A stretch of 64,000 nucleotides of DNA from Tribonema minus (taxonomy: Eukaryota > Sar > Xanthophyceae > Tribonematales > Tribonemataceae): positions 1,612,001-1,676,000 of the forward strand of contig JAFCMP010000223.1 of assembly GCA_017506865.1 (NCBI GenBank). Reading direction: 5' to 3'. The position numbers were made by a program, and so were the translations under genes. This document shows positions 1 to 61,864 of the stretch, one piece after another; position 1 is the first letter of the stretch; every line of letters begins with the position of its first letter. The notes under the pieces are model-generated. The model worked only from the letters and a program-made list of their open reading frames with translations. It was not told the DNA's origin and searched no databases.

Positions 1-3000
1 GCGACATGCGCCTGCTCAACGACGTGAGTGTATGCCTGAGCGTTGCCACTGAAATACGCGTTTTGAATCATACTGAGGTATCATTGCGCTGCTGCCCATC
101 AGACCGGTCGCTCATTAATTTTCCAGTCAGCATTACCTAGGCGTGGCGCCTGGAAGCGCCTACATCACGCGGCGCAAAGATACATCATGCATGCACGAGT
201 ATAGTGGTGTGGCTGTTGAATAGTGTGAAAGCTATTTACAAAGGCACTTGTAGTGCCGCCTGTGAGAGGCAACCTTTGTCTGAAAACAACTTAAGCAGAG
301 CGTGTGCAGCTTGACTGATCATGGCGTGTGGAAGACGTGAGCATGACCCAAAAGTATGTTCCCCTCAGCTCGCCACAGCAGGTCATTGACTGTACTAAAA
401 TGCGTAAGCTGGATGCATGCTGACCTAGCATGTTAATGATGCAAGATTTCAGCGCTTGGACCTTGGGAGGCTGCATTGGCTGTGGCTCCCTGTCGAAAGT
501 AGCATCAGCCAATCCTAGCCATACACCCCTGGAGTCTGCATTGGCTGTGACCGCTGTTGAAAGTGGCATTACCCGATCCTAGCCATACACCCCCCTGTCT
601 CGTGTCGTCATTAACGCCCTGTCTGCTGGTGCTGTGCAGGTTCTGGATGACCTGATCAACAGGGCCAAGGATTCCCGCCAAGAGCTGGACCTGGAGGACC
701 TGCAGGTGCGTTCCAAACGCTCCTTTTAATGCTGAGCAATGCTGACTTTGAAAAAAGAAACGAGACCTCCAGTTCCGTGTCAGGCAGCCCTAGCGGTCAC
801 TTGATGCTGAGCACTGCGGTAGCCCTGATTCTGAGCACTGTGGAGTTGAGTTCACGGGTGTACTCGTCGTCCTGCGCGCTCGCAAGGGTAGTGGTGGGTC
901 TGCACGTGTCAGGAAGCGCCTGGAAAACGCCAAACCTTTTTCTGAATGTTATGTCCGTCTTGTGCTGCAGGCGCACAACTACGAATCATACTGCATATTG
1001 CCTGAATTATACATGTGGTGTTGCAAAGTACCGTTCTGTCAGCAACTGTGGGATGGTTGCATACACTGACCGAAACACGCGCGTGATCGGCAAACTATAA
1101 GAGTATGAACTTACTGCTGTTCTTGTGCTGCAGGCGCGCAACTACGACAAGGTCACGGACGCCAGCATGCTGCGCTTCCTGGTCGACCTGAGGGGCGAGG
1201 ACGTGTCCAACAAGCAGGTACAATATATGTCCAAAAGCGGGCATGTAGGTTGGCCAATGATGAGGGTCAGGGTTAGGGATAGGGTTAGGCTCCCGAGCAC
1301 TGTAGGGTTAATACGGTTTTGCGCGATGAAGTATATAGGCAGGCCAATAAGTGGGTAGGTACTGGCTGGCAATCGACCAGTTTTTGTCATGCATACATAC
1401 CTGATGCACGTACACAACACCTGCCATTATGCGATTCACAGCTCCCGACTGTGTTCTTTCTGCATTATCTGATACGCGGATTGCAACGCAAAAGTCCGAT
1501 GACAATGCCTTAGCAGTTGCGGCTGACAGCGGTGCCCACTTGAGGTACCATTACGTACCCATATTTATGTGCTTGAAGTACGACAATTGTGTACTCCCAA
1601 ACGTATTATTTCTAGAAGATCTTCAGTTATGCATGTAGCTGATACGTACGCACTGCAAAGTATAAGCAGCTGTTTCTTGTTGCCCACCGCCCCCCGTGCC
1701 CCCCGCTCCCCCCTCCCCCTGCAGCTGCGCGACGACCTGATGACCATGCTCATTGCGGGCCACGAGACCACCGCAGCAGTGCTCACCTGGGCCACCTTTG
1801 AGCTCGCGCAGCGCCCCGAAGTCCTCGCCAAGGCGCAGGCGGAGGTCGACAGGGTGCTCGGCGACCGGCGGCCTACCCTCGATGTGAGTGCTGATTACTC
1901 TTTGTCTAAATGCGAGTGCTGGTTGCTGCTGGTGTCTTAGGGTGCTGTGTGTTGGTCTCTGAGGGTGACGGTTGCCAACCGTAACTCTACCATGGTGTAG
2001 GCCAACAGGGTCCTTGGTAACCTGCGCTACGAGGGTGGTGAGCTCTGCGTGCCTGGCGCTGTGCTCCAGGAAACGCGCTCAATTCAAGGTCGCGTCAAGT
2101 TTTGCACCTCCATGCGGCATGCAACCTCAACATGGACGCAACACGTAGACTGTACGCGAAAAGGTCGTCTCGAACGCCGCAAAGCCTGCGCCTGCAAGAC
2201 AGTTGTGAAACAAACGGAGTTAATCATGATGGTGTAGCCGGAGACCCGGCGCACGCACTCAATGTTGCACCGTCAAGCATCGCCCCACTTCAACATGGAC
2301 TCTGCGTCGTACATCGCCTCACAATCATGACGCCCAACCCACACCCTGTAGGACATCAAACAAATGGAGTACATCAGGTTCACCGTTGCGGAGAGCCTGC
2401 GCATGTACCCCGAACTAATGGCACTGCTCAGCTGCAAACTTGAACATAAGCGCTCCTCTGGTACTGAACCTCAAATCCATGAATGCTGTACCCTGCAGGA
2501 CATCAAGCAAATGGAGTACATCAGGTTCATCGTTGCGGAGAGCCTGCGCATGTACCCCGAACCGCCGCTGCTCATCCGCCGCGCGCTGGAGGACGACGTC
2601 CTCCCCAAGGGCTCGGGGGAGTTCCAGCCCAAGATTCCCAGGGTGAGTGAGTGAGTCAGTGAGTGAGTGAGTAGGTGATTCATGAGCAGCTCATCCGCCG
2701 TGCGCTGGAGGATGACGTCCTCCCCAAGTGCTCGGGGGAGTCCAGCCCAAGATTCCCAGGGTGAGTGAGTGAGTGAGTGAGTCAGCCACAAGCAGCTCAT
2801 CTGTTGCGCGCTGGAGGACGTGGTCCTTCCTAAGGGCTCGGGTGAGTTCCAGCCAAAAATTATCAGGGTGAGTGAATAGGTGAATAAGTGAGTAAGTGAG
2901 TCACCAGCAGCTGATCCCGCACGCTGGTCAATGATGTACTGACCAGCTTGAGTTTCACAGGGTGAATTCGTAGTGAGTGTGATTGAGTGACTGACTAGCG

Positions 3001-5399
3001 AGAGCAGCTGGTGATGCGCTGCGCTTCGGACGCTGGCGCCGTGCCTTGGAGCTCAGGAGTGTCCCAGCTCAAGGCACCTGGAGCCAGTGAGTGAGTGAGT
3101 GAATGAGTACATAGAGGACCAGCACCAGCTGATCTGCCGCTCATGGAAGGTGACGTCAAGGGTTGAGGGAGTTTCAGGCCAAGACTCCTGACGAAGGCCC
3201 TAGCATACCCACGCGTTAGCCATGGTCCCGATCGAAGCAGAGTTGCTGTTGTACAGTTTGCATCTCACCACAAGGCAGCAGCCCTTGCTCCTCTCTTTCA
3301 AAGAAGGACCGAGGTACAGGATCTGCTGCAGAAAGCTGTCGTGCAGTGAGAATCTCGCACCAGTCTTGCCCCTTGCACTTCCAGCTCTCCATGGTTGCTC
3401 ACTGCTGCACTTCACTGTCCGCTGCCAGGGAGCTGCCATCTTCATGGCAATTTACAACATTCGCCACTCCTCTATGGACAACCCCATTCATTTCACAGAA
3501 TGCTGCCGCCGGCTTGCTCCTTGTATCTTACCCCGACCCCCCCTTGGTTGCTCGCTGCTGCATTACGTTGTCCACCAATCAGGGCGCCGACATCTTCATG
3601 GCGATCTACAACATCCACCGCTCTCCGGAGTTCTGGGAGAACCCCGATGAGTTTGACCCCGACCGTTTCAAGCGCCCGTTCACCAACCCGGGGGTGGAGG
3701 GGTGGGCGGGGTTCAACCCTGCCGCGATGGAGGGGCAGTTGTACCCCAATGAGGTGTGTATAGAATAGAGGGTATGGGTATGGTGGTATTGTTCCCTAGG
3801 CAGTTCGGGGGGTGGAGGGGTGGGCGGGGTTCACCCGCCGCGATGGAGGGGCAGCTGTACCCCAACGAGGTATGTATGTAAATGAATCAGAAGATCGTGG
3901 AGCTCTAGGTGACAAGGTGTGGGTAGCCGTCAAATTGAATGCCTTCCACTAATAAACGTGGTCGCCGCTGCTGCGGCAATTGGCCACGAGTCAAACAGTG
4001 CCACCATATCCACAGAAGTCGAAAGACTTCTGTATGCAAGCTTTTTAGCGTTCGAGGCGTGTATACGTGTGAAAAGAGGGTATGGATATGTGGTGGTATT
4101 GGTCTCTAGGTGGGCTCGGTGACATGCGTATGATGCAGGGAAGGTGTGTGTAGGTGTAGTGGCGGGGTGCGTAGGCAGACTACAAGAGGCAGCATCAGTT
4201 CTTGCGCCGCCCCCATATTTGGTTGTGCACGGTCCCTGCAACCAGGACATGCAGCAGCGCTCAGCAGTGTTGAGCTGTCATTACTGCAGGACTAATCAGT
4301 AGCGCGGCTTTGATTGCGTAGTGCTTGTGCCGCGGGCCGCCAATGTCCATGTTTTCATGACATTCTGCTGCGCTCCGCCTCCCCAGCACGTCTGTCCTGC
4401 ACCACGCAGCGATGCAAGCAGCCGCGGACACCGCCAAATTGTCTTGTAACACCTGCGATTGCGCATTCGATCGCACATGCATGGCTCTCTTCGCACCGGC
4501 ACCTATGCGCTGCTGACATCTTGTGTACATGCTGTGATGGTGATGCTCCGGTGGTGACGCTCCACAGGTCGCGTCCGACTTTGCGTTCCTGCCCTTTGGC
4601 GGGGGCCAGCGCAAGTGCGTGGGAGACCAGTTTGCGACCATGGAGGCCGTCGTTACGATTGCCATGCTTTTGCGGCGATTCGAGTTCAAGCTGGTGAGCC
4701 GAGGCAAAGGATGAAGCAGTGGCAGCTTAAACTGCCTTGACGTACTGTCCTGCATGACGCTGATTTCTGTCTTGACACTGGCACTGTATATCCGTGCTGT
4801 TGGCGGCGATTTGAGTTCAAGTTGGTGAGCTGAGGCAAACGATGACGCAGCAGCAGCCCAAAGCGCCTTGCTGTAGTGCATCTTGCCATCAACTGGTGTC
4901 AATTGTGCTTCACGGCGATTGTAGACCAAGGCTGCGACGCTTGCATCCTGTTTGTGTCAGCCGTAGAGCAGAGGTGGCGTCAGCAGTGGCCTGCTATGCC
5001 GCAGTGGGCGCCCCGCATGTAGCACTTGACACGACCACTTGACCGTCCGAAGGCCACTCACTCGCTTGGCTGAGGTGCATCATGCCGCTGTGCACAGACT
5101 CGTTGTTCCATGCTGTCACACGCTGTGCTCAACCGCTCAACTCACATTTGAAGTTTGAACGTGACTTGCACCCTCACCGCGAGACACAAATGTGCTTGCC
5201 GCAAGTCATCGCGCACTGCGCCTTCCGAACGCTCTTTTCACGCGCCCACCGCTTGCAGGCGGTACGGCCCGAGGAAGTCGGTTTCTTCACAGGCGCCACC
5301 ATCCACACGCGAAACGGCCTGCCAATGACCATAACACGGCGGCAAACGGACAAGGCGCCGGCCGCGATGGCCGAGCCGCAAGCAGCGAGCGCCGCATGA
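1..5399 (+). CDS. CYP97: CYP97-type cytochrome P450, 3' part (carotenoid ring hydroxylase family)
   Basis: The gene is cut by the window edge; eight exons are visible: 1-23, 640-705, 1134-1217, 1725-1883, 2499-2642, 3583-3753, 4568-4693 and 5259-5399, together 303 codons ending at TGA. All join in phase 0 with GT-AG introns. Seen: [20 protein letters not shown] (I-helix with AGHETT) in exon 4, ESLR of the ExxR motif in exon 5, and the haem-binding loop [10 protein letters not shown] with its cysteine in exon 7. The [15 protein letters not shown] signature and the C-terminal GATIHT stretch are typical of CYP97, plastid enzymes that hydroxylate beta or epsilon rings of carotenes to make xanthophylls; subfamily (A, B, C or an algal one) is not settled. 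N-terminal targeting lies outside the window. Its introns contain repeated copies of exon ends (separate entries). Family is certain, substrate inferred. Confidence 0.94.
1998..2044 (+). repeat. Echo of the 3' end of P450 exon 4
   Basis: The stretch resembles the last 40 or so bases of exon 4 with its donor (ACAGGGTGCTCGG versus ACAGGGTCCTTGG, then a GTGAG-like donor). It lies just downstream of the true exon end and is clearly decayed. I read it as an old tandem copy of the junction, not an exon. Confidence 0.55.
2344..2431 (+). repeat. Echo of the acceptor and 5' half of P450 exon 5
   Basis: After a TAG acceptor the first 64 bases match true exon 5 (from 2499) with two differences, then the similarity breaks off. 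It could be spliced in as an alternative exon start, but it has lost the LLIRR part of the exon. It lies about 150 bases upstream of the real exon. Confidence 0.85.
2687..3190 (+). repeat. Array of decaying copies of the P450 exon 5 3' end plus donor
   Basis: Successive blocks starting near 2690, 2793, 2908, 3004 and 3124 each begin with a CAGCTCATC-like string, continue like the last 60-70 bases of exon 5 (the stretch for [14 protein letters not shown]) and end in a GTGAGTGAGTG run copied from the donor. The first block is nearly perfect, with a one-base deletion; later blocks become steadily harder to recognise. The GTGAG runs form short microsatellites. Confidence 0.85.
3388..3468 (+). repeat. 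Echo of intron end plus start of P450 exon 6
   Basis: The stretch TGGTTGCTCACTGCTGCA to the codons for IFMAIYNI repeats 3541-3626, which spans the true acceptor and start of exon 6. The copy includes an AG at the matching place, so it is a decoy acceptor about 150 bases upstream. Confidence 0.8.
3795..3880 (+). repeat. Echo of the 3' end of P450 exon 6 plus donor
   Basis: The stretch from GGGGGTGGAGGGGTGGGCGG to CCCAACGAG and a GTATGT donor repeats the end of exon 6 (3690-3760) with small changes. A shorter echo of the exon 7 end and donor lies at 4797-4836. Confidence 0.85.
3887..3965 (+). repeat. Dispersed short repeat, copy 1
   Basis: The block reads AGATCGTGGAGCTCTAGGTG, then ACAAGGTGTGG, then GCCTTCCACTAATAA. 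Related blocks occur at 12800-12870 and 13310-13360 on the same strand and, inverted, near 24835-24915 and 31020-31080; shorter pieces lie near 57846 and 60660. Both orientations and unrelated flanks suggest a small mobile family (SINE- or MITE-like), but I see no coding capacity and could not define the ends. Confidence 0.55.
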
Positions 5400-18169: not shown

Positions 18170-20337
18170 TTAGAACGCGCCCTGGCCGTCGCCGAAGGGG
18201 CTCAGGTGGCCGGAGATGAGCTGCTGGATGGGGGTCTGCCCGGTGACACCCTCGCCCACCTGATATATGTGCAGATACAGGAAGCAAGGTTGAGTGCCAG
18301 TTACGAGCGATGCAATGTTCAGCAGCGCACGAGAGAAAAAAGTACAGTGTTTCGGACGGCAATTTGCCCCCGGCTTCTGGTCAGAAACAGCTGAAGGCCT
18401 TGTGTTGGAAATCACTTAGCCTTAATGTTAATCGTCACAAGGCAAGATAGAGACCTTTCTTGAAGTTGGCAAATGGGCTGCAGACGAGCTTGCGCGATTA
18501 CCAGCAGAACGCAGGGCATGCTTGTGTCAACATATTTGCAACAGGCGCAGCACCAACATGATACTCTCGGGCCTCACAACTGCCCCCCACCCTGCTCCCC
18601 GGCACAAAGCGCAGCAGCATGGTCATGGTACTGGAGCCTACAATTTTGCCCACCCTTCAAGTACCATGCTTTTGAACAACGCGCACAAGCACAGCACAGC
18701 AGCAGCGCTCAAAGCACACACACCGCTCACCATCATGCCCATGATGCCGAACATGGCCAGGCGGCCGTTGTTGAGCTCCTTGTTGAGCTTGTCCTCCTTG
18801 ATGGCGGGGTCGCTGTAGCGCACCCACCCCTTGCCGCCAATGTCCCCGGGCGCGTTCTCCGGCTTCTGCTGCCACACAAAGAGCTCCAGGAACCCAACGA
18901 ACAGGACGATCTGAACGATGCCGAGAGGGGGCACCGCCTTCAGCGCGCCCAGGCCGTTGGGAATGTCGCTGAACTTGAGGTTGTTGGAGGGGCTGATGTA
19001 GCCGGGAAAGCGGAAGAGGTCCGGCACCAGGTAGCCGACGGTGGCGAGCATGGCGCTGTGGCGGGGGGGAGCGCAGGGGGCGAGACAGGGGAGGGGGGTG
19101 AGAACACAGTACAGCAGGCGATATTGTCGGTGATTGAACATGAGGGAGCCTGCATGCTTGTAGTGAGACATGAGGGTGATCAGCTCTTACTGCTCCAGAT
19201 TCGCCAGCCCTGCACTGTTGTGCAATGTTTTGGCAGCGCCAGAGCTACTCAACTTGTTGCACTCTTCATGATGATCAAAATCCAGAAGTGCAACGTACTT
19301 AGTCTCCACAGCAAAACACACATTAACCAATTACAGGATCTTGTTGGCCACAAACCCTATCCAATGCACCGCGCGCTCGATCGCCTCCACTGTCAGCAGC
19401 ACTGGATCCACATTGTGTGGAGCTTCCCAATGACACTTCCTGGCATGTTCCTGAACGTCCCTCTGCTTCACAGTCTGCTGCCACTCTAGATACTTGCGCG
19501 TGTGCTCGCCCCAGACATCACAGGCTCACAACTGCGCACACAGCGCGCACAACACTTACATGCGGCCGTGCTTGATCTCCACAGCGCGGCGGCGGTTGAA
19601 CGCCTCCTCATCGCCGCTGTTGGTGAAACCAGCGGGGTCCCAGTAGCCTGTCGTCAGAACAGCACAGTGTCAAGTGAAGGCGCGGGTCAGCCTCGTGCTA
19701 TAGCAACGCCCAGCGCGCAGGATCCAAATCCATGCTGACTGAGGGAAGTGTGAGGCCCAGGAAATCACAGCCTGCTGAGGGGGGACCGGCAGGCTGCGAA
19801 GCGAATAGCACCAGCTACCGAAGGCAGAAGTTGTGCCGGCGGTTGCCCTGATCGCCGTCGCTAAACATGGCTTCACCAGGAGCTCGCGTGGACTGTCCTA
19901 AAATTCATGATCATGCGCGTAATGAAAATTGCCCACTGGCAAAACACAAGCCCGCCAGGGACGGTTCTGGCAGCGACAAGCAGAGCGGTCTGCTGTTCGC
20001 GCCAGGAACCGCCAGCCGCCAGCCCGGCTGCCGCTGGCATGCCCCCCAAGATTTGTTTGCCCTGACATGAACATGTGTTGTCGGAAGTAGCCCCTCACAA
20101 AGCGCACGCCCGCTCCGTCCGCTGTTGCGATCAGGCCTGTCCACGGCTCCCAACAGCACTGGCGCTGCTCACATAATACTCACCCAGAGGCTTGGTCACG
20201 CCAGTGCTGTCCTCAGCGGACATCTTCAGGGAGCTCGATGACCGTGCGACATTGGCGAGGCTGCGGCCGGGCGCCTGCACGAACGCGCTCGCGCTCGCCA
20301 CAACGGACGCGACGGCGACGACAGCTGCGGCCTTCAT
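18170..20337 (-). CDS. Chlorophyll a/c light-harvesting protein 1 (FCP/LHC family)
   Basis: Four exons on the minus strand: 20337-20184, 19647-19560, 19055-18731 and 18259-18170, 218 aa, all in phase. Residues 1-19 form a signal peptide ending SASA, then FVQAP: the Phe at +1 is the marker for import into a secondary red plastid. Helix 1 carries EIKHGRIAML (Glu75, His78, Arg80) and helix 3 ELNNGRLAMF (from Glu174); each Glu-Arg pair locks the helices and binds chlorophyll, as in all LHC proteins. A middle helix lies at GIVQIVLFVGFLELFVW. The C-terminus is LSPFGDGQGAF. It would sit in the thylakoid membrane as an antenna protein. Subgroup (Lhcf, Lhcr or Lhcx) is not resolved. It diverges from THG1 with 589 bases between start codons. 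Confidence 0.96.
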
Positions 20338-50600: not shown

Positions 50601-53600
50601 TTTTGTGGTTTGATGATGGAGCAAGCTCTCGTTTCGCTTGCAATTCGGCGTGCATACTTCAAGCACGTCCCGCGGGAGCCACATGCAGGTGCACTTTTGG
50701 TGTTGGGTTGACAGTTGAGAATAACTGCAAATTTAGAGTGGCGGTCAGTACTAGGGCTAGGGTTAGGGTTAGGCTTTCTAGGGTTTGCTGCGCGCCGGCC
50801 ATGCTGCTGAGCGCGGCCATTGCCTCTTTCATGACCTGTGCGCGAGTACACAAGTTGCAGTTGGCAAGCATGCAAGCTGCCACTTTGCGCTCTGTTGACT
50901 CCCCCTTGTACCCCAAATGTAGCCATGTGCCACAACGATCAGTATCGCGCAGCTCAAAAGTGGGGATAACCCCCAACCAGCAACCAGCGCCCAGGCCCAG
51001 TGGTGGTGCATTGCACTGAGCTGCAAAAGCATGGTGCAAGTGGTGAAGCAACTGCCTGTGCCACCATACATGCGCACAAGTCACACCGGAAGCCACATTA
51101 AGTAAAGATTTGTTTTTGTCCATTGTGGATTAGTGTTGGGGTCGCTCGTGCAGCAGCAGGCTGCTGGTAGAGTAAGAGCAGGTCGCGCATCCCCTGAAAC
51201 GCCATCAGTGGATTCTCACGTCCAGATGTACATCCGATCTCCAACTCATTCGCGACAGCTTGTAACCCCTTTTCTGCTATTTCCCTCAAATGCCTGTCCC
51301 GCCGCAGTGTGCCCGCGGCAAACGGCGCAGCTAGCGGCCTGGTGGCGCTGCTCGCTGCTGCAGATGCACTGGCTGCCGCCGCCGATGACCTTCACCTCAC
51401 CAGCCTGGCAAACGCCATCGGGTGAGCACCGCTGCGTTGCAGTTTCATCACTGGCGTGTGCCAGTCAAATTACAGCTGGTCCTAGCCACCTACCGTAGCT
51501 GCGACCTACTGACGGCCGCCCCTGACGTCCTTCACCTCACTAGCCTGGCGAATGCCATAGGGTGAGCACTGCTGCGTAGCGTTCAACTAATTAAAAGCGC
51601 AGCCTTCACCTCAGCAGGCTGGCCAACGCCATTCGGTGAGCGTTGGCACTGCTGCATTACATTTTCATCACCGGCATGTGCGAGCTAACCCAGGCCTGAT
51701 GCCAGCCCTAGCCCTAGCTACCGACGCAGTCACCGCCCGCTGGCATCTTTGACTTTGAGCAGGCTGGAGAAGGCCATAGAGCGAGCACTGCGACATAGCA
51801 TTTTAGTATTCAAAAGAGCGCAGCGCCATCTAACTTTAACCTTTGCCTTAGGACTAGAATGTCACCGTACCTTAATCTTGAACTAACCCTTACACCAGCG
51901 ACCACAGGCGTAGTGACCGCCCGCCCGCGGTGGCGTCCGTTGCTTCAGCAGCCTGGCGAAACCGCCGTTGGGTGAGCACTGCTGCATCACATGAGTACTA
52001 TCGTCGGCTTTCCCGGGTACCCTGGCCTTGAACTCTAGCCCTACGTCAGCGCTGCTGCGCCACATCACGAGTGATGACTGTTGCTGCAGCATTTTCATTG
52101 CCCAAGTGACGCAATTGCGTACTGACACCAGCTCCTGCAGTACTTATTGTTTGCTCACATGTCAATCATCACATACACATTCATGCCACATTTTAAGAGC
52201 CGATATGATGTAGACTTCTATTTCAGTTAGAGCTATATAGCGGCGCCCAACGTAGCACCATAGTGTCCAAGTCCGTCATACGCAGACGGCGCTTTGGCGG
52301 AGGGCGCGCGGTCGGTGGCGAGAGTCAGTGCTCATACACTGCAGTGAGCACTGTCACACTGCTGCTCAGCCAATCAGGACAATGAACGCTTACATGTTCA
52401 GAACGATCTGATCAATGCACCTGCAGTAGGCGAACACATGTCAGAGAGAATGCGTGCCCACATTCACCTTCTTTTGCCGGCTTGGATGCCATCAACCATA
52501 TGACCCCCTTGCGGCGCACATAATGGTTTTGGGGCTTTGAGCAATGCTCACACCAGCACGTTCACAAACCAAAGCTACTGCCGCGTGACGCTTGCGCTTT
52601 TGTTCTTGGGAAATCACGCTGCATCGTATGGATCAGCTAGTGCCAAAGTGACCGACTGAGGGTGCCATTCTGTTTCTTTTCAGAATCTTTTGGCGCCATT
52701 TTAGTTGTAGTTTAGGTATGCACAGCATCAACAGATATCAGCAGACTGACATGTGTTCATGTTTTGAACACGAACAACTATGGCTTGGGACATATCATTG
52801 CACGTCCATCCGGTCACCTGGCTGACCAAAGCACCGGCCATTGGTACTGTGTGTGGCGTGCAGGTTTGCGGCATTCCAGGGCGAGGCATGGGGCCGTGTG
52901 GGTTCACGCAGGCAAGATGCGAGAAGATGACGCACCACGTTGAAGTTGATGATGAACCACGTTGAAGTATATGAGTTCGCTTTGCAGTGCAGTCCCAGTT
53001 GCTTGCTTGAGTTTGTAGTTGTCATGAGCGACGTACTGGGCACAAGCGCTAGCAGCGTGCATTGGAGTCCAAAGCGGGGCACTGGCGCACCACAACACAA
53101 AGCCCGCCCACTAAGGCCCACATTGACCGGCCTGAATGTCCTGTTCCAGTATCAGTACAGCATCATTATTCTCGTTGTATTGTTTCGATGTGATCAGCGT
53201 CGTTTTTGGTCAGCTATGTAACATGTTACACTTTCCTGCACTTCGCTGCACCGTTGTGGTCGTGTCACCAGCTTAGTGGGCTGATGCCTGGGGCGTACAT
53301 AGCGCCTTCAGCAACACTGTTTTTTCTTCTAACCAACAATTACTACGTTCGAGCAGCTCGCGTGCTGTCCTTCTGTATCGCATTGCATTGTCATAACCGT
53401 GTCACCAGCTGTGTGAGTGACACTTGGGGTGGGCACTACGCCTGCAGCAACGTTGTGTATATTTCCCACCAAGGGTTACTGCGTTCAATCAGCTCATATT
53501 GCTGCCCTTGTGTGTCGAATTGCATTGCCGTGGTCATGTCAACAGCTTTGTGGGTGATGCCTGGGGAGGGCAATACGCCTGCAATAACACTGTACCAGCG

Positions 53601-56600
53601 GAATCTTCGCCGACTGGACTGCCTGTTTGCCTCAACCCTCTGCACGTCTCTACGGCATTCACCAATCTTGGGCCAATAGCGGTGAGAAAATGCTCGATGC
53701 TAATGATGGGCTTAAGTTTCTGTTAGTCCCAACCTTCTGCATGTCTCTACTGCGTTTGCCAATCTGGGGCCAGTAGCGGTGACAAGACGCTTGAATCAAC
53801 GGGGTTGCAAAGTTAAGCTTTGATGTGCCAGTAGCTTTGCTGTGTCAGCAGCGAGGTTTTTCAAGATGGTGGATTTTTTTTCCACTCAGGAAGCACAGCA
53901 TTTGCCTATCTCGTAGCGGTAAAATCTTCGCTGAAAATCCGCAGCACATTAGTGGGAGGCTGGTGAACAATTACGAGTGCAGTGCCACCCTCGCTGTGAC
54001 TGCGCAGGGGTCCAATTCAGGAGCGAAGGCTGACAACGGGTCGCTGCAGTGATGTCATGGATGCTGGTGTGGCCGACAGTCTTTCTCCCCTAGCACAGTG
54101 CTGTTTGCCCCCGCTTTCTGACTGGCAATCACTGTCCATGCATCATTTTGACCGTCAATCGTCGATCACTCCATAAATCAGTTGACCTCGCTTGGCACGC
54201 CTTGCAATGAATACGTCGATCGATCAATCAGGTATCGTGGGATTGCGGTCGCATGTGCAGGCAGTGCTTGCAACAACACAGCGTCAATGAATTCATGAAT
54301 GAATCCATCAATGTAGAAAACCAGTCTGTCAGACACGCATCTGTAGAAAAAGTCATCAGTCACGCATCATGCTGTCGATGCCGGTATGCGTGAAAATTCA
54401 CTAACTTCACCAATGAATTCATTGATCTGTCAGACACGCATCTGCAATAAAGTCACAAGTCACTCATCGTGCTAACGCGGCCGCATGTGCAGGCAGTGGT
54501 GGCTCTGGATCAAGTGGGCATCCTCTCCTCGCCGCACAGCTTGTTTCTGCACGCATCACCGGCTGCTGCAACCTCAAGTGAGACGCTCCGTACCACCTTT
54601 TTTGCTTGTTTTACTCGTCACCACAACCTGTGCAGCATCAGTAAGGATCCCCATAGAACCACTGACATCTGACATCAAAGGCAGCAAGGGAGGCTGGTAA
54701 GGCGGTCGTTGTTTGAAAGGCGCAGAGAGCAACGTGACTCATAAAGCACGCATCACCGGCTGCTGCAACCTCAAGTGAGACGCTTCGCACCCCTTGTTGG
54801 CTTGTTCTACCCATGAAGTCTATGATTCTATCGTGTTGTGCGGGTCCGGAACGTACTGCAACAAGCAATGGCATGCTCACATGCTATACTGGACCAAGTG
54901 CCCAGAATCTCATTGTGAGTGAATCATTCACTTTTTCTGTATCTCATCGCGCTCTGCAGGTGTGGCCGCACTTCTGGCAGTTGGCACAGATACGGCACAA
55001 ATAGCCGCAAATGAGGCCTCGCACTCGCTGTCGTCATGTTACGGTCAAAACCATGTACTTGGATGGCCCAAGATCCATTTTGGCTGTCAGTTCCAGTCAT
55101 ATCTGGTAACAACAGGTTTTGTTTCAACTGTGTTTCGTTTTGCAATGTGCAGGTATAGACGCACTACTGGCAGTGGGCGCAGACATCGGCGGCGATTTCT
55201 CCATGGGCCCATCATCCACTCAGGAGCTGCCACCCACGTCTCTAGACTCGTTCCTCGAGAACAACTCTTCCGTCGCGGGATTTGTCATCTCAGGCTACGA
55301 CCACCCGTTCGCCGACGAGCTGTACCGCAGGTGAGCACTGCCATGTTTTTTGGTGCGCTGAGCGCTGCTGACGTGTGCTGCAGATGAGCACTGCCATCTT
55401 CAAATGACGAGCGCTGCGAAATGCCTACATAGAGTCATTGGATGCTGAGTGCAGCTATCTTGGGATGGGGCGATCACAGCCTGTGACGACAGTGAGCCTT
55501 GTCATGCTGGAAACGTTCAATCAGCGAGCACTGCCATCTGCAGACGATGAGCACTGCCATGGCGGGTGGTGAGCGCTGCCATCTTGAAGATGGCAAGCGC
55601 TGTCAGCTCTGTATACGTCAAGCACCGCCATCCGTGGCCAGACAGCACATGGCAATCTTTGGGTGTTGAGCACTGAACTCTTTTGATGCTGGGCACTGCC
55701 AACGCTGAGCAGTTCCATTTTTCAATGGTGAGCGCTGCCATCGTGAATTTGTGATTGCTGCCGTCGTGGGACTATGTGCGATGCCATCTTTGTAACTCCT
55801 GCTTAGCAGTACATCCCCATTCACCCGTTTTGTGGCTCGGCTGGTTGACCTTGAACCTGCAGACGCGGGCAGACAGGCTCTCACATGATATTTTGCCCAT
55901 GTTTAGTTGCATCTAAAGACAGCCTTGCCCTTTTGTCTGCAGCCATTGGGACACTGCGGACAGGCTGGATGGCGCTACCATTCAACATGCGGCGCTGGCG
56001 GCGGCCAGGGGAGTGTACGTGCTGGCGGGGGGTTTGCTGAGCACTGGTACGTGTGTCGGAGCGCTGCCACGGGTGCCTCTTAACGCATAGGGCAATCTTA
56101 TTAGTCAAACGCATAGGGCAACCAGTCAGCTGAGTACTGGGAAAACAACTGATGTTGTGTACTTCGCAGCAGGTCACCTGTGATCAGTAGAGCTTCGGAG
56201 CTAACCAAGGCATAGGACAATCAGGCAGCCAAGCAGCGGGCGATGTTTTGTACTTCAGAGTAGGTCGCATGTCGTCAATGGAGCTTGAAGTGCAAATATC
56301 ATATGGGTGTCTGCCACAGTTTTATTGGCAACTGGAAGAATTGACCTGGTCAATCACGCAATGCGAGGCTGGTGCCTCGAAGCATTTTACAGCAGTTGCT
56401 GGCATGCCAACACTCGCTTACCCAGCCGCTCAGTGTATGCGTCTCGGCAATGACCCCCTGATGCTGTTGTTTGTCATTGCAAGGTCTCACATTCACAAAG
56501 ATTCACAGAGATTTGCTATGCATAAACGCCCAGTCATCAACATTGACCTGCTATGTTCGGTCCCTGAACCTGCTGCATTGATGCATCAGAGTGAGCACTA

Positions 56601-59600
56601 GGATCAGAGATGATCATGAGGACCCTAACCGTAGCCCTAAACCTGAGTAAACAGGCAGTGCCGCCCTCTTTGCGGCTATGTTGGAGCAATGGAATGCTGC
56701 CCTCTTCGCTGCCACATCCGATGCTGCCGCACTATTGCCAGCATAATGATGATAGTGTCGATGTGATGGTCCATTTTGAAAACAGTCAATGGCACCCTAC
56801 TTGCAGGCATGCGGCACATCCATGTGCACACCCAACGCGGCACGGCGACTTTGTGTTTGAATGGCAAAGCGACCGTTGTTCACCCCATGCGGCGCCACTC
56901 CTCCATTTCTCACCCGACCACAGCAAGTCATATGTTCAAGTACTGTTACGCAACATCATCTCTTTGAGTATCGCATTGCGCCGCGCGCGCAGCGATGGCG
57001 CGCATCGCCCTCACGAACTGCAGCGCAAGTGACATATGCACACCTGACGCCCAATTTTCAAAGTCAACAACGTCTTCTTTTCATGAGGTCACCCCATGCG
57101 GCAGCACTTTTCCACCTCTCACCTGACTACACATGTACATACTGTAAATTTCACTTGTCTCTCTGACGCTGCGCTCACAGCGATGGCGCGCATCACCGTC
57201 CACGCGACCCTCATCGACTCGCTCACGGACTGCATCGCAAATCACATAAGCACACCTGACGCCCGATGTTCAAAGGCAAAAAAACGGCTTCTGTTAACCC
57301 CATGCGGCAGCACTTCTCCACCTCTCACCTTACTGTGACCATATCATGAATTCTATGCGTCCCTCCGACGCTGCGCGCGCAGCAATGGCGCGCATCGCCG
57401 CCAACGCGACGCTCATACACTCCCTCACGGACTGCATTGCAAATGACATGCACATGCACACCTGACGCCCGATTTCCAAACGCGAAACCTTTTCTGTTCA
57501 CCCCATGCGTCAGCGCTTTTCCACCTCTCACCTGCTCACATTTTGTACATATCACGTGTGTATTTCACAGCGATGGCCCGCATCGCGGTCAACGCGACCC
57601 TCGTCGCCTCCCTCACCGACTGCATCGCGACCGATTGGGCGTGCCCCCTGATGGCCCCCTACGTGCAGAGCGAACTCGCGCGCGCCGCAGCTCTCGCGGG
57701 CAGCGGCGGCTTTGAGTTTGGCTTTGACTCCGGGGCCGCACCCTCCCTGAGTTCGGGGGTACTGGCGTGGTGGGGGGGCGGGGGGTTGCCGCTGGTGCGC
57801 CGCTACAGGTAAGCTGAGCACTGCACCTTTTCTCTCATGTTATCGAATCAAAAGACCGTAGAGCTCTTACGGTCGAGCGCTGGCTCACCTTTGTTGCCGC
57901 TGGTGCGCCGTTACGGGTGACGCTGAGCGCTGCACCTTTTCTATTGGTAGTTGAAGTTCAGTACGTCCTTAAAGTGTCAGTCGTGGCTTCTTCAAGTTGT
58001 TGACCAGCTTCCAAAGCAGCGTCATGCAGTATGCTGCCTTGAGCGCTGCTGCTTTGCCTTGTGCTGCCGCTGGTTGCGCCGCTGCGGCTGCACTGAGCAC
58101 GCGTTTGCGTAATTGAGCGCTGCAGCTGCAGCGTGCTTCCGAGCACTGGCATTTTGAGCACTGCACGCCTGTTTTTTTTTTGTAGTTGAGCGCTGCTGCT
58201 GCTGCACTGTGCTCCTGTTGGGTCTGCGAGATGCCGCTGCATCCGACACTTCACGTGCTTTCCCTATGCCTGAGTGCTGCGGCTGCTGCGGCAGCGCAAG
58301 TTGCAGTGATTGAGGATTGAAGTGATGTATGCACATGCTACGATCTGTTCGTGTCCTTGGCAAGGGGGGGTTAGAGTTGGGGTCAGGGGTCAAAGGCACA
58401 CTGCTTATTGTACAGCGTACTGTAATCACTGGTGAACGGGCAACACTTCAACTTCAGAGGATGCGAGGTCTGATGCAGTTTTGGTGGTTGCCTTCTTCTT
58501 CAGAGCTTCAAAACTTGCTCTGTGTCTGGCATGAGGAGGTTCAAGAGGTCAGAGAAGTAGGTGACTCTCCGTCACTGGCTCAGAAGTCCACAACAGTGAA
58601 GTACGCAAAGACCGCTGTCTGAAACACCAATAGCGTCCCACAGAGCTGCCTCTATGCTTGATCGAACGACACGTTTGTTTGCACCACACACCTGGTTCTC
58701 ACCCCCATAAGTACAACTACAGCACTGCAACAACCGCTGGACCTCACGAACTCATCCCTGTGCCCCCTGTTGCAATCATGACTCTTACTCATCAGCGCCG
58801 ATGGCAGTTGGACGGCTGCAGCGACCACCAACGAGACTTGGAACCCAGCCACCGACGCGCTGTTTCTCGTGCCAAGCCCCCTGGAAATGTTTGTGAGGGC
58901 ATACTTGGGAGAGAAGCTCGTTCTCGCGGGGGGAGCAGACTATGTTGGCGGGAGCTGCGGTGCAGTGGAGAGCCTGCCGTGTGCCCCGTGTTCAGGTCTG
59001 TGAACTGTCCGTGAACTGCTGTGGTAGTGCATGTTGAGTGTGCCACGTGTTCAGGTCCGTTTGATGATCTTTGTTCTTTGGTGTACTGCATGTTGAGTAA
59101 GGAGGTGGTGCAGGCTTCCTGCTGTAGTGGACAGGCAGAGTGGCTTCGAGCATCGGCCAGGTGTGAGAGTAGTGGCCAGCAGACCACTGAAGCAGGTACA
59201 TCCTTAAGGTACGTATGTTGTTGTCATGGCATGTCACAATCAGTGACAATTCAGCTCAGACAGAGACTTTGGGGATACCATATGTTACCGATACTCTGAA
59301 GTGGGTTTGGTTGGTGGTGAAGCTTCAGGTGCTCAGCACTTCATGGAGTGTTCGAATCGCAAACTGTCACTGCTGAGCTGGCTTCATCTTCAAACTTTTA
59401 TTCAAGTGTACATGGCTGCCAAGGGTGCTACTTGTGGCTGAGCGCCGCAGCAGCACTGCTCAGTAAATAAGGGCATCAGCCACATGTTGTCAATACGTCA
59501 CCCACGGCATAACGCAATGGAACATCAATGTCCACGTCAGCACGGTCTAGCGCCAGCTATTCTCTGTAGCATCGCAGCATCATCCGACCTGCCAATACAA

Positions 59601-61864
59601 CGCAGTTTCGGGATGACCAACCAGACCTGAACAAGGGGCACAGGGCAGAATACGTGGAGGTACTGCACACAGGCCTTGTCAACGCTTTGCGACATTACGT
59701 TTCGATACATGGCTGGCTATGTGCATGGCAAGAGTCCCATAAATCCCACCCAACTTTGTTCTTGTATGCGCATGCTGATCTGCTTGTACACCCCCCCCCT
59801 CCACGCCTCCTCACGCTGTTTTACCTGCCGCTCTGCTGGTTGCGTGTGTTGCTTGCGTGACAATCCAGTTGGAGAGAAGCCGGTGCCCATGGAGTGCGTT
59901 GCGGGCAAATGCATTTGCCCTCTGGCACACCACCACATTGCCCTGGACCCAGGTATGTTTGTGGGTATTTTCACTTCACACTTGAAGTACATGACTGTGG
60001 CGTGCGGGAGGGGGCTACCCAGAGATGCCCGTTGCAGTGCTGCTGTAACGCGTTACATATAGCGTGATATGAGTGGCAATTGCGAACTTCAAGATGGAGT
60101 GTGTCACAAGTCGCTGCCCTCGTCCTCCCCGCCAATGTGCGTGTATGCGGGGGCATTGTCGTGTGCTGTGCCACCTGGCCCCGCAGTGACTTTCGTGGTT
60201 GTGTAGCCTGTAGTACTGGCATTGCGCAGTGGCTTTGCTCTGCAGTGATTTCAAAGGTTGTGTAGCCTGCAGTGCTGGCATTGCACAGCAGTGGCTCTCG
60301 CTTATTTGGTGTGTACGTTCAGCTCAGAGCTCAGAGTACAAGATGGCGGCGGCGGCGTTTGAGTGGTTGTCGTTGAGACGCATTCAGACTGTCACACGAC
60401 ATGTAGATTCCGTACAGCAAGCTTCAAGTTAGATGCCATTTATCTGGGCTTTTTTGCGCCCTGAGCGAGAATTAATAAAAGTACAATGTGACCTTGCTTG
60501 TGCTCCCCCAAGAGTAAACACGCAAAGACGGCTGCCCTGCGGGCCTCAGGCTGTGCACCGTCCGCAAGAGGCAATATCAGGGCGCGCTTACTCAACGACA
60601 CCTGTTGGTACCCGGCCACCACTTTGCAGTACAGCATGATTTGAGGTACATGGAAACGAATCTAAAGATCGTGTAGAGCTCTACAACATACCCTGGTGAT
60701 GCGCAATACATACATACTCCGGCGACGCATGGCGTACGGCGCTCCCGTGTTGCAAGCAGCCAGCAAGACGCACCGCCAAAGCACTTGTCTGCCGTACTCT
60801 GAATGCTGCGCGCCTCCAGGGCTCGAGAGGGAGGCTTTCGCGGGCCACTACCGCATTGTCGACGCCGCTGCCGAACTGTGGGCGGAGCCCAACTGGGGCA
60901 CCATTGGGGTTAGCGGGTATCTGGACGCTGGCAAGCGCATTGGGTGAGCACCGTCAAGTCATGCCGTGTTTTTTTGTTAAATTGAAATATTTCGGGCAGT
61001 GAACCTGCTGTTTTGGCGGTTACATGTGTGCGTGCTGTACCGTGCGAGCCCGGCGCCGGTGAGCGCATTGGGTGAGCACTGCCACACGCCGCGCTCTGGT
61101 GACTAGTTGTTTTGGCAGTTACATGTGTGCACATGTTCCTCTTGGCAGTTACATTTGTGTGCAAGTTTGTGCTGAGGCGTTGGTGAGTGCTTCAGGCACT
61201 GTCATCTCAACCCCAGCGCCTGCTCTGAATGTGAAACTGGTGATTTGGCATTTGCATCTGCGCACATAGTTCAGGGCTTATTGGTCACTGGCAAGCATGT
61301 GCAATGCAGCCAAACTCAACTGGGGGGATACTGGTGTTTGAGTGAAGACGAGCACATAGACCGAGCGCTGACTTTCTCTCAATGTAGAGACGTGCCACCA
61401 CTTGAAGTGTAGTCATCAGTGCTCGTCTGCGCTTGCAGACCTGACGTCAACGTGTGCATGTGGGCGGGGATCCGAGTGTTGACGTAGTATGTTCTGAAGC
61501 GCGCGTTGCTGCTGCAAAGCCTGAAATCGCATGTAGCTTGCTGTCCTCCACTGCGGACCTGCTGCTTGCGATAGAGCCAAATGCTGCTACAAACGATCGC
61601 AGCGTGCACGTTGTTCATTAGTGCGTGTTTCCTTTCCTTGGCACTATCAATTTTGTCAATTTCCATCCGCATTGTCTGTACCCCTCACAAGGCCTGTACC
61701 AAGATTTTTTAACCTACCACCTGTTAGCAGAACTAAACTTCTACTGTTCTCTCTCGTCTGTCTGCAGGGTCATAGCTCTAACGCTGGGCATCATCACCAC
61801 GGCCATTGGTGCCTTTGCGTCATACAGGCTCCGCCACGCTCTGGTCAAGCGCAAGCTGCTGTAG
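44641..61864 (+). CDS. NCSTN: Nicastrin, gamma-secretase subunit (5' end not resolved)
   Basis: Fifteen exons: 44641-44709, 45426-45545, 46370-46447, 48189-48416, 50111-50292, 51308-51421, 53546-53681, 54493-54577, 55153-55330, 55943-56046, 57571-57808, 58796-58995, 59869-59952, 60820-60943 and 61768-61864, 678 aa so far, all in phase. Nicastrin is the type I membrane protein that gates substrates into gamma-secretase. Seen in order: SPCVRMFHSGGDIGC, VVSQLEGTGVLGGLLVVD, AFSPEDRREGWNAHGSALL, PVVLLSAAMDSVSFFHNT, NGAASGLVALLAAADAL, FVGDAWGGQY, VVALDQVGILSSPHSLFLHA, LPPTSLDSFLENNSSVAGF, an SWTAAATTNETW stretch, LWAEPNW, and one transmembrane helix (VIALTLGIITTAIGAFASY) with a short KRKLL tail. 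The signal peptide exon is missing; ATGGAGCTGAACCTGACG at 44493 could be part of it but does not join in phase by its obvious donor. The gene is about 17 kb because its introns are full of repeats. Confidence 0.93.
46636..47326. mobile_element. Non-autonomous inverted-repeat DNA element flanked by TA
   Basis: The ends are perfect inverted repeats of 21 bases (CCGTAAATCACGGGG and on), or 23 counting the flanking TA on each side (46634-46635 and 47327-47328), as left by Tc1/mariner-type insertion. Inside, both halves carry copies of a block with GTATAAGATACC, TTTCTTA, ATTGACAG, TGTATGTAAGATACTAGGTT and TGCTGTATAAGA; the middle (about 46860-47150) is unrelated and has a CTG run at 47007-47029. 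There is no transposase. It lies in the intron after nicastrin exon 46370-46447. Confidence 0.88.
47895..47965. repeat. GAGTCATGA palindromic mini-array
   Basis: Five or so tandem, partly palindromic copies of TGAGTCATGA/TGAATCATGA lie in a nicastrin intron, next to a telomere-like tract at 48034-48075. Confidence 0.7.
48770..49352 (+). repeat. Cluster of telomere-like tracts in a nicastrin intron
   Basis: Long runs of TTAGGG variants occur at 48770-48842 and 49240-49352, with an inverted short run (CTAACCCTAACCCTAA) at 49139-49154. Around them are two related stretches near 49030-49090 and 49440-49530 sharing GTTGT and GGGCGG.TGTCCGA.G-type sequence in opposite orientations. This is the densest telomere-like cluster of the window. 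Confidence 0.85.
51505..51985 (+). repeat. Four tandem copies of the nicastrin exon end at 51421
   Basis: The exon end TTCACCTCACCAGCCTGGCA, then AACGCCATCGGGTGAGCACC, is echoed near 51528 (CTGGCGAATGCCATAGGGTG), 51607 (CTGGCCAACGCCATTCGGTG), 51762 (CTGGAGAAGGCCATAGAG) and 51953 (CTGGCGAAACCGCCGTTGGG). Most keep a GTGAGC donor followed by ACTGCTGC. Similarity falls with distance. Confidence 0.9.
53255..53460 (+). repeat. Two upstream copies of the acceptor and start of nicastrin exon 53546
   Basis: GTCACCAGCTTAGTGGGCTG and GTCACCAGCTGTGTGAGTGA are followed by GATGCCTGGGGCGTAC or GACACTTGGGGTGGGC and CTGCAGCAAC. They match GTCAACAGCTTTGTGGGTGA, GATGCCTGGGGAGGGC at the real acceptor. The period is about 140 bases. 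The nearest copies could still be read as weak acceptors. Confidence 0.88.
53722..53785 (+). repeat. Downstream copy of the 3' end of nicastrin exon 53681
   Basis: CAACCTTCTGCATGTCTCTA, then CTGCGTTTGCCAATCTGGGG, then CCAGTAGCGGTGACAA repeats 53632-53690 including the donor. This exon thus has echoes on both sides. Confidence 0.9.
54165..54492 (+). repeat. Repeats before nicastrin exon 54493
   Basis: TCGCATGTGCAGGCAGTGCT at 54249 is a copy of the acceptor and first bases of the exon (CCGCATGTGCAGGCAGTGGT at 54481). Around it CAATGAATTCAT, CTGTCAGACACGCATCTG and AAGTCA.CAGTCAC.CATC recur at 54290-54365 and 54408-54470. A copy of the exon's 3' end and donor lies at 54743-54785. Confidence 0.88.
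54945..55000 (+). repeat. Upstream copy of the acceptor and start of nicastrin exon 55153
   Basis: TGCAGGTGTGGCCGCACTTC, then TGGCAGTTGGCACAGATA repeats TGCAGGTATAGACGCACTAC, then TGGCAGTGGGCGCAGACA of the true exon. The copy is open for a short distance only. Confidence 0.88.
55331..55760 (+). repeat. Array of GTGAGCACTGCCAT units grown from a donor
   Basis: The donor of exon 55330 begins GTGAGCACTGCCATGTTTT. About ten GAGCACTGCCAT or GAGCGCTGC words follow, spaced 20-70 bases apart, down to about 55745, several still reading GGTGAGCGCTGCCAT, so the intron start contains a field of donor-like sites. Confidence 0.82.
56790..57570 (+). repeat. About 190-bp tandem repeat carrying acceptor and start of nicastrin exon 57571
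   Basis: Copies of GCGATGGCGCGCATCGCC occur at about 56992, 57179 and 57382, before the true exon (CGATGGCCCGCATCGCGG) at 57571. Each unit holds ACACCTGACGCCC, TTCACCCCATGCG, CACCTCTCACC and the acceptor. The later copies keep the exon similarity through ACGGACTGCATCGCAAA. A fourth, older unit is visible around 56850-56990. Confidence 0.92.
57885..57935 (+). repeat. Downstream copy of the 3' end of nicastrin exon 57808
   Basis: GTTGCCGCTGGTGCGCCGTT, then ACGGGTGACGCTGAGCGCTG, then CACCTTTTCT repeats the exon end plus intron start at 57786-57832. Similar small donor echoes lie near 59036-59062 (after exon 58995) and 61055-61085 (after exon 60943). Confidence 0.85.
60195..60300 (+). repeat. 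Short tandem duplication in a nicastrin intron
   Basis: GTTGTGTAGCCTGTAGTACT, then GGCATTGCGCAGTGGCT is followed 59 bases later by GTTGTGTAGCCTGCAGTGCT, then GGCATTGCACAGCAGTGGCT. No exon is involved. Confidence 0.85.

What the first reader, a model, noticed from the sequence alone, without database searches (positions are those of the whole stretch)
1998..61085. Introns built from decaying tandem copies of their own exon-intron junctions
In six of the eight recognised genes (P450, DUF1995, THG1, SUMF1, thioredoxin-like, nicastrin), introns contain repeats whose unit spans a splice junction: exon end plus donor repeated downstream, or acceptor plus exon start repeated upstream. At least fifteen junctions show it, on both strands, with units from about 60 to 240 bases. 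Copies nearest the real exon are usually best preserved, giving an age gradient. This points to recurrent tandem duplication at junctions as the main mode of intron growth here. It would leave a field of decoy splice sites, with splicing still using the outermost intact one. Known tandem-duplication models make new introns; this seems to lengthen old ones.
Basis: partly seen in the sequence, partly recalled or inferred. Interest (0 to 1): 0.9.

Follow-up and report, generated by a model that had tools for sequence, protein, structure and literature searches.

The report
Splice junctions duplicated into neighbouring introns
In this 64-kb piece of an algal genome, many introns carry older and younger damaged copies of the exon-intron boundary beside them, so introns appear to have grown by repeated small duplications that the splicing machinery ignores; single cases are known elsewhere, but this density in one place looks unusual.

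Summary
I modelled six genes in full or nearly so (CYP97, DUF1995, THG1, SUMF1/FGE, two fucoxanthin-type LHC) and nicastrin and a thioredoxin-like gene in part: 69 splice junctions. 26 of 69 have a copy in their own intron that beats all 200 shuffles (reverse-strand control 1 of 69); 20 copies cross the junction by at least 8 nt on both sides. Near direct repeats outnumber near inverted ones 48 to 5. In the 26 introns of the six genes, 11 of 14 independent duplications cross a junction, against 3.95 expected for placements that spare the exon (P 5e-5); a null allowing for easier detection gives P 5e-5 to 2e-3. The exon is constrained and the copy decays. Decoy splice sites are intact in 34 of 38. 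The age gradient is a tendency, not a rule. The two LHC genes have no crossing copy (0 of 12 junctions).

Best reading: recurrent local duplication; units crossing a junction are tolerated because splicing keeps the exon-contiguous site, so the intron lengthens. 'Main mode of intron growth' and junction targeting are not proved: recognisable copies cover 19% of intron sequence, and one window cannot stand for a genome. New variant of a known kind.

The parts
640..5366 (+). CYP97-type P450 gene, 3' seven exons: 640-705, 1134-1217, 1725-1883, 2499-2642, 3583-3753, 4568-4693, 5259-(end uncertain)
   Evidence: spliced frame open; a draft of exons 3-6 matches LUT5/CYP97A3 6l8i at 4.7e-57
958..984 (+). 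decoy copy of CYP97 exon 2 acceptor (1121-1147), 96%
2343..2415 (+). decoy copy of CYP97 exon 4 acceptor plus 64 nt of exon (2490-2562), 96%
2686..3188 (+). array of decoy copies of CYP97 exon 4 end + donor; four span the donor (GT, GT, GT, GC), identity 0.94, 0.83, 0.76, 0.74 outward, plus a fragment
3389..3469 (+). decoy copy of CYP97 exon 5 acceptor + start (3542-3623), 77%
3808..4110 (+). decoy copy of CYP97 exon 5 end + donor (3690-3761; copy 3808-3877, 92%) and a weaker second copy 4054-4110 with only 3 nt of exon
4792..4878 (+). decoy copy of CYP97 exon 6 end + donor (4662-4747), 80%
13438..16518 (+). DUF1995 gene, four exons found: 13438-13605, 14781-14822, 15598-15719, 16344-16518; first exons missing, last exon end uncertain
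   Evidence: Pfam PF09353 1.1e-10 on the spliced protein
13024..13308 (+). two decoy copies of DUF1995 first-modelled-exon acceptor + start (13024-13097, 13264-13308)
13712..14003 (+). two decoy copies of DUF1995 exon end (13552-13605) + donor
15249..15490 (+). two decoy copies of DUF1995 exon 3 acceptor region (15491-15610)
20927..26377 (+). THG1 (tRNA-His guanylyltransferase) gene, seven exons: 20927-21094, 21305-21408, 22527-22676, 23317-23410, 24189-24272, 24977-25060, 25946-(end uncertain)
   Evidence: an exon draft matches 7cv1_A at 2.3e-78; spliced frame open
25209..25679 (+). decoy copies of THG1 exon 6 end + donor (25036-25128)
29301..34679 (-). SUMF1/formylglycine-generating-enzyme gene, six exons found: 34679-34455, 33379-33225, 32337-32193, 31553-31400, 30446-30338, 29432-29301
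   Evidence: an exon draft matches 2aft_X at 1e-37; spliced frame open
33430..33496 (-). weak decoy copy of SUMF1 exon 2 acceptor
32795..33169 (-). three decoy copies of SUMF1 exon 2 end + donor
31871..32139 (-). two decoy copies of SUMF1 exon 3 end + donor
29608..29676 (-). decoy copy of SUMF1 exon 6 acceptor + start
41334..43044 (-). thioredoxin-like gene, partial: donor 43044, donor 41999, acceptor 41334
   Evidence: draft pieces match 2ypm_A at 1.1e-6; the exon ending at 43044 was not in that query
42775..42982 (-). decoy copies of the donor at 43044 (exon recognised partly through the echo)
51308..60943 (+). nicastrin gene, partial: 51308-51421, 54493-54577, 55153-55330, 57571-57808, 58796-58995, donor 60943
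   Evidence: Pfam PF05450 1.5e-6 supports the 55153-55330 exon only; PDB nicastrin only E 0.12; the other pieces rest on coding score and reading by eye
51508..51985 (+). three decoy copies of exon 51308-51421 end + donor
54746..54810 (+). decoy copy of exon 54493-54577 end + donor, 91% (exon recognised partly through the echo)
56979..57440 (+). decoy copies of exon 57571-57808 acceptor + start
57893..57942 (+). decoy copy of exon 57571-57808 end + donor, 90%
61054..61079 (+). decoy copy of donor 60943, 26 nt, 88%
18170..20337 (-). fucoxanthin-type LHC gene (LHC1), four exons, no junction-spanning echo
   Evidence: Pfam PF00504 5.6e-37; best PDB match 6j3y_11 fucoxanthin chlorophyll a/c protein 5.7e-56
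36807..38866 (+). second LHC gene (LHC2), four exons, no junction-spanning echo; not sent to a family library
   Evidence: LHC motifs read by eye and DNA similarity to LHC1; open frame

Best explanation
These are fossils of recurrent local direct duplications (tandem at origin, I think), mostly about 60 to 240 nt, in an algal nuclear genome. When the duplicated segment straddles a splice junction, the copy still joined to the rest of the exon stays functional and the other copy falls inside the intron, so the intron lengthens and gains a decoy splice site. Duplications inside exons are removed by selection; intron-side copies decay neutrally. The same junction can be duplicated again, so several copies of different age can stack outward from the exon. 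Shown: direct, local, junction-crossing copies; constraint on the exon and change in the copy; decoy splice sites mostly intact. Inferred: that splicing uses the exon-contiguous site (from protein homology, no RNA data); that the duplications arise by slippage, unequal exchange or break repair; and why junctions are hit about two to three times more often than allowed placement predicts.
For: Near direct against near inverted matches 48 to 5 at score 50 or more, far direct 2, far inverted 4. Of the 51 near-direct matches at score 46 or more, 27 touch a modelled exon or junction; all 27 cross that junction (one with only 3 nt of exon), none has exonic sequence in both copies, none is a purely exonic copy. 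26 of 69 junctions above all shuffles, reverse strand 1 of 69. Exon sequences against introns of other genes: 1 of 1104. Over 25 exon-crossing alignments, mismatch is 11.3% in exonic and 17.3% in intronic columns, and by codon position 10.1, 7.2 and 17.5% (array copies counted more than once; codon positions of the nicastrin pieces read by eye). With one best copy for each of 12 exon sides, position 3 12.1% against positions 1+2 5.5%, P 0.005, and exonic 7.7% against intronic 16.2%, P 4e-7. Decoy sites intact in 22 of 25 donors (one as GC) and 12 of 13 acceptors. 11 of 14 clusters cross a junction, expected 3.95.
Against: No RNA, no second genome, one window. Repeat coverage is not concentrated within 100 nt of junctions (P 0.29). 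At 9 of the 17 junctions with a match at score 46 or more, the exon copy and the decoy are spaced, not contiguous (gaps of 44 nt or more; hand count), e.g. 2343-2415 with 74 nt of other sequence before 2490 at 96% identity, which a plain tandem duplication does not give without a later insertion or replacement. Three of ten three-copy sets run against the age gradient.
Confidence: 0.75

Rival explanations
1. No junction effect at all: local duplications fall at random, exon-internal ones are purged, and junction-crossing ones are merely easier to recognise because one copy is held by selection.
For: The needed ingredients exist: exonic columns are better preserved than intronic ones, and a simulated null with detection bias already gives 25 to 37% junction-crossing, up to 41% among close copies. 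Intron bases within 25 nt of a junction are inside a repeat hardly more often than intron bases at large: 276 of 1,300 (21%) against 3,360 of 17,968 (19%).
Against: 11 of 14 observed; P 4.6e-5 to 1.7e-3 over twelve settings; all five clusters at 85% identity or more cross a junction, P 1e-3 to 1.1e-2.
Confidence: 0.35
2. Junction-targeted mutation: transcription, splicing-linked R-loops or chromatin edges make exon-intron boundaries hot spots for break-induced duplication.
For: Excess beyond both nulls. Duplications that do not cross still end close to an acceptor where an exon is modelled nearby: 30456-30630 at 9 nt, 38121-38254 at 12 nt, 14489-14678 at 102 nt, and, from coordinates, 466-593 at 46 nt, 34739-34873 at 59 nt, 54325-54473 at 19 nt (that exon recognised partly by its echo). 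No test was made of these distances; other non-crossing repeats lie where I have no gene model.
Against: Fourteen clusters in 26 introns, 10 of the 11 crossing ones in three genes; LHC genes, probably strongly transcribed, have none (0 of 12 junctions against 14 of 41, P 0.015); coverage test P 0.29. No mechanism was tested.
Confidence: 0.25
3. The copies are functional alternative exon ends or alternative splice sites kept by selection.
For: 22 of 25 decoy donors and 12 of 13 decoy acceptors are intact. If overall identity is squared as the expectation, 27.5 of 38 would be intact, so 34 is high (rough P 0.01 from hand-copied identities).
Against: Copies differ from the exon at codon positions 1 and 2 at 5.5 to 9%, so they accept amino-acid changes. 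Overall identity also counts changes in the exon and true intron; with the decoy's own rate alone (5.5 to 9% per site) about 32 to 34 of 38 intact sites are expected, as seen (hand estimate). Copies tend to decay outward.
Confidence: 0.06
4. The introns themselves were created by tandem duplication of an AGGT-bearing exon segment (Rogers/Hellsten model), and the copies are relics of that birth.
For: Tandem duplication is the process in both.
Against: That model puts a copy of the next exon's start at the intron 5' end and of the previous exon's end at the 3' end: 0 and 1 of 26 introns; copies lie beside their own junction.
Confidence: 0.03
5. Assembly error.
For: No reads were available.
Against: Copies differ by about 2 to 31%, are tied to junctions, and occur in genes on both strands.
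Confidence: 0.02

Closest known systems
Potato RdRp tandem duplication across an intron-exon boundary (PMC4974935; abstract and outline seen)
   Same: A tandem duplication crosses an intron-exon boundary; most splicing signals are inherited from the parental structure.
   Different: [quoted passage not shown] here the reading frames and homologues suggest a longer old intron. There one case; here 20 junctions in 64 kb.
Internal tandem repeats at exon-intron boundaries of human paralogs (PMC2812944; passages seen)
   Same: Tandem repeats at exon-intron boundaries change intron structure (27 intron modifications reported).
   Different: Variable repeats in recent segmental duplications, with novel or alternative introns; here unrelated genes and decaying copies.
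Tandem-duplication intron gain (PMC2891723, passages seen; Rogers 1989, Gao and Lynch 2009, Hellsten 2011 recalled; Zhuo 2007 seen only as a title in a reference list)
   Same: Local duplication of exonic sequence with splice signals, one copy later turned into intron.
   Different: Makes a new intron from an exon-internal proto-splice site; here an existing junction is copied.
Introner elements (PMC7789003, passages seen)
   Same: A route to more intron sequence in algae and protists.
   Different: Introners are repeated across many introns and behave like mobile elements; these copies are private to one junction.
Local tandem duplication by patch-mediated break repair in rice (Vaughn and Bennetzen 2014; recalled, not read)
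   Same: Frequent local direct duplications.
   Different: Not tied to splice junctions, as I recall.

Membership tests
Intron gain by tandem duplication (AGGT model) | intron 5' end copies next exon start; 3' end copies previous exon end | tested here: not met
   0 of 26 and 1 of 26 introns
Intron gain by tandem duplication (AGGT model) | intron absent in relatives | not testable with these tools
   no genome is held for the window and the collections offered hold no eukaryote relatives
Junction-crossing tandem duplication (potato RdRp type) | duplicated segment crosses an intron-exon boundary | tested here: met
   20 of 69 junctions
Junction-crossing tandem duplication (potato RdRp type) | a new intron arises and part of the extra copy becomes part of it | tested here: inconclusive
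   spliced frames are open without the copies and the CYP97 and SUMF1 homologues show no place for the copies in the protein, but there are no RNA data
Introner elements | same sequence in many introns | tested here: not met
   far direct matches 2 against 48 near at score 50 or more; foreign introns 1 of 1104
Neutral tandem duplication with purifying selection on the exon | exon constrained, copy not | tested here: met
Neutral tandem duplication with purifying selection on the exon | junction-crossing share as allowed placement and detection predict | tested here: not met
   11 of 14 against 25 to 37% expected, P 4.6e-5 to 1.7e-3; small sample
Neutral tandem duplication with purifying selection on the exon | copies contiguous (head to tail) | tested here: inconclusive
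   contiguous at 8 of 17 junctions, spaced at 9 (hand count)

The most novel reading that the evidence does not exclude
In this lineage exon-intron boundaries are mutational hot spots at which 60- to 240-nt segments are duplicated again and again, so existing introns grow outward from their own junctions in datable layers, and the spliceosome must reject a series of intact, intron-proximal decoy sites in favour of the outermost one.
Probability: 0.25. Interest if true: 0.85.

Novelty: new variant of a known kind. Interest (0 to 1): 0.6.

Why it matters
How introns lengthen is usually put down to transposons and unspecific insertion (general knowledge). Here a source of added intron sequence can be read directly, dated by its decay against a constrained exon, and counted. 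The window is also a natural splice-site competition experiment: copies with mostly intact decoy sites begin about 40 to 560 nt inside the true junctions, on the side that the classical proximity rule (recalled) would favour. If it holds genome-wide, it gives a measurable rate of intron growth and a test of intron against exon definition in an alga.

Tried and rejected
Intron birth by AGGT duplication: tested, not met. Introners: tested, not met. Functional alternative exon ends: codon-position pattern speaks against, though intact decoy sites are somewhat more frequent than squared identity predicts. Chance: shuffles and the reverse-complement control. Concentration of repeat coverage near junctions: rotation test P 0.29, a negative result. 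I first read 12809-12853/13307-13351 as a local duplication, then found it is one of about five copies of a dispersed repeat and dropped it from the list of near-acceptor duplications; it lies outside the 26 introns. The interior-position control (124 of 1287 positions hit, 9.6%, against 14 of 53 junctions, 26%) does not separate junction from interior well, because 123 of the 124 hits fall in introns that also hold junction copies (the other is in SUMF1 intron 4); I relied on the placement null instead. An Rfam scan and a bacterial-code tRNA scan of the window found nothing. The species was not identified: fucoxanthin- and peridinin-type LHC matches point to a red-lineage chlorophyll c alga (inference), no closer. 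Literature: eight searches in an open-access library; listings and abstract starts seen, six papers opened for abstract or passages; no listed title or abstract start described junction duplication as a general way to lengthen introns, which does not show that none exists.

Full report
What was checked. The window (64,000 nt, GC about 54%) is eukaryotic and no genome is held for it. I built gene models from homology and open frame: CYP97 (a draft of exons 3-6 matches LUT5 at 4.7e-57), THG1 (draft 2.3e-78), SUMF1/FGE (draft 1e-37), DUF1995 (PF09353 1.1e-10 on the spliced product), LHC1 (PF00504 5.6e-37; a fucoxanthin chlorophyll a/c protein 5.7e-56) and LHC2 (LHC motifs, similarity to LHC1 and open frame; not sent to a family library). 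CYP97, DUF1995 and SUMF1 may lack 5' exons, and the last exon ends of CYP97, DUF1995, THG1 and LHC2 are uncertain. A thioredoxin-like gene (1.1e-6) and nicastrin (PF05450 1.5e-6, one exon; PDB only E 0.12) are partial. The PDB queries used draft exon edges; final edges come from GT/GC-AG sites and frame continuity. The six models read through without internal stops. This gave 34 donors and 35 acceptors; one donor is GC (23410).

Is the pattern real? A self-comparison of the window gave 36 direct matches, all 65 to 505 nt apart, and 8 inverted. With a more sensitive search, near direct matches outnumber near inverted 48 to 5, with far direct 2 and far inverted 4, at score 50 or more. Each junction (up to 60 nt exon, 60 nt intron) was aligned to the rest of its own intron, or to 1,000 nt where the other end is unknown: 26 of 69 beat all 200 dinucleotide shuffles, the reverse-complement control 1 of 69, and 20 cross the junction by at least 8 nt on both sides. 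In the six genes 14 of 53 testable junctions have a crossing copy, 7 of 25 donors and 7 of 28 acceptors, with no reverse-strand hit; intron interior positions score in 124 of 1287 tests, 123 of them in introns that also hold junction copies. Exon sequence without intron hits introns of other genes in 1 of 1104 tests.

Is it more than neutral placement? In the 26 complete introns (17,968 nt) there are 14 independent duplication clusters at score 46 or more; 11 cross a junction. If clusters are placed at random wherever they would leave the exon intact, 3.95 are expected (P 5.4e-5); for clusters at 85% identity or more, 5 of 5 against 1.2 (P 2.7e-4). Because an exon copy decays more slowly, junction-crossing duplications are easier to see. 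A simulation with this bias raises the expected share to 25-37% and the P value for 11 of 14 to between 4.6e-5 and 1.7e-3; for 5 of 5, between 1e-3 and 1.1e-2. So there is an excess, but from 14 clusters, with 10 of the 11 in three genes. Against it: repeat-covered bases are not concentrated within 100 nt of junctions (942 of 5,200; rotation mean 820, P 0.29). That test also allows placements that would break exons, but it is the simplest positional test and it is negative.

Which copy is the gene? Over 25 exon-crossing alignments (array copies counted more than once) mismatch is 11.3% in exonic and 17.3% in intronic columns; by codon position 10.1, 7.2 and 17.5%. With one best copy for each of 12 exon sides, position 3 has 12.1% and positions 1+2 5.5% (P 0.005), exonic 7.7% and intronic 16.2% (P 4e-7). 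This is what is expected if the exon accepts mainly synonymous change, while the copy and the intron are free. The copies are therefore most simply read as decaying decoys, not alternative exons.

Age order and recurrence. In 12 of 14 junctions with more than one copy the nearest copy is a better match than the next one out (hand count). Of ten three-copy alignments the distal copy has more private substitutions in six (for the CYP97 exon 4 donor: exon 1, near copy 3, far copy 14; SUMF1 exon 3 donor: 2, 5, 19), fewer in three (THG1, 51.4-kb donor, 57.6-kb acceptor) and equal in one. Repeated duplication from the exon junction explains most arrays; at 57.6 kb the two copies resemble each other more than the exon, so arrays can also grow internally.

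Decoy sites. Where a copy spans the splice site, 22 of 25 donors (one as GC) and 12 of 13 acceptors are intact. Squaring the overall identities predicts 27.5 of 38 (rough P 0.01); using only the copy's own rate of change (5.5 to 9% per site) predicts about 32 to 34 (hand estimate). There is no sign that decoys are purged, and no firm sign that they are kept. Yet LHC1 and LHC2, usually highly expressed genes (general knowledge), have no crossing copy: 0 of 12 junctions against 14 of 41 (P 0.015). Their introns are also shorter (285 to 542 nt), so this is only a hint.

Mechanism. Contiguous arrays (8 of 17 junctions) fit slippage or unequal exchange; at the other 9 the exon copy and the decoy are spaced (hand count; for example 2343-2415, 96% identical to 2490-2562 with 74 nt between), which needs a later insertion or a template-copying repair. 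One spacer holds a dispersed repeat (13307-13351). Copying of random local templates into introns should also leave purely exonic copies; there is none among the 27 of 51 matches that touch a modelled exon or junction, which favours tandem events under selection. The copies are not relics of intron birth by the AGGT model.

Known or new. A tandem duplication across an intron-exon boundary is described in one potato gene, with a new intron as the outcome (PMC4974935, abstract), and tandem repeats at exon-intron boundaries alter introns in human paralogs (PMC2812944, passages). Intron gain by exon tandem duplication is established (PMC2891723, passages). In eight searches of an open-access library I saw no listed paper that treats junction duplication as a pervasive route to longer introns. 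I rate it a new variant of a known kind, and of clear interest if it holds genome-wide.

Noticed in passing
3871-3949, 12788-12853, 13307-13351, 24849-24918 (minus), 31024-31097 (minus): Dispersed repeat of about 65 nt, five copies in or near introns, 71 to 89% like the copy at 12788.
   Followed up: partly
33696-33788 (minus) and 60391-60486 (plus): A 97-nt sequence shared at 88% by a SUMF1 intron and the nicastrin region, sense to the gene in both.
   Followed up: no
27543-27614 and 27915-28134: A 96-nt tandem unit (97%) of which 72 nt is also present inverted and identical a few hundred nt away.
   Followed up: no
9065-9102, 15249-15610, 48032-48068, 48768-48840, 49238-49351: Interstitial telomere-like TTAGGG runs; TTAGGGTTAGG 13 times on both strands against a mean of 0.0 in 20 second-order Markov sequences.
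   Followed up: partly
55333-55580 and elsewhere: GAGCACTGC occurs 24 times against 2.2 expected, in places right after donors as GTGAGCACTGC; seven GAGCRCTGC follow the donor at 55330 at 22 to 27 nt steps with one gap.
   Followed up: partly
63529-64000: 195-nt direct repeat, 99.5% identical, 277 nt apart, cut by the window end; the most similar local duplication of this length here.
   Followed up: no
53256-53794: Two further local repeat arrays in the nicastrin region, no exon placed there; they may be more junction copies.
   Followed up: no
10837-11598 (minus), 6769-7374 (plus): Long open frames with coding-like composition; a 69-aa piece of the first and the whole second had no Pfam match at E 0.1.
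   Followed up: partly
23411-24188: THG1 intron 4 has a GC-AG border, CAG|GCAAGA.
   Followed up: yes
18170-20337 and 36807-38866: LHC genes lack junction-spanning copies, 0 of 12 junctions.
   Followed up: partly
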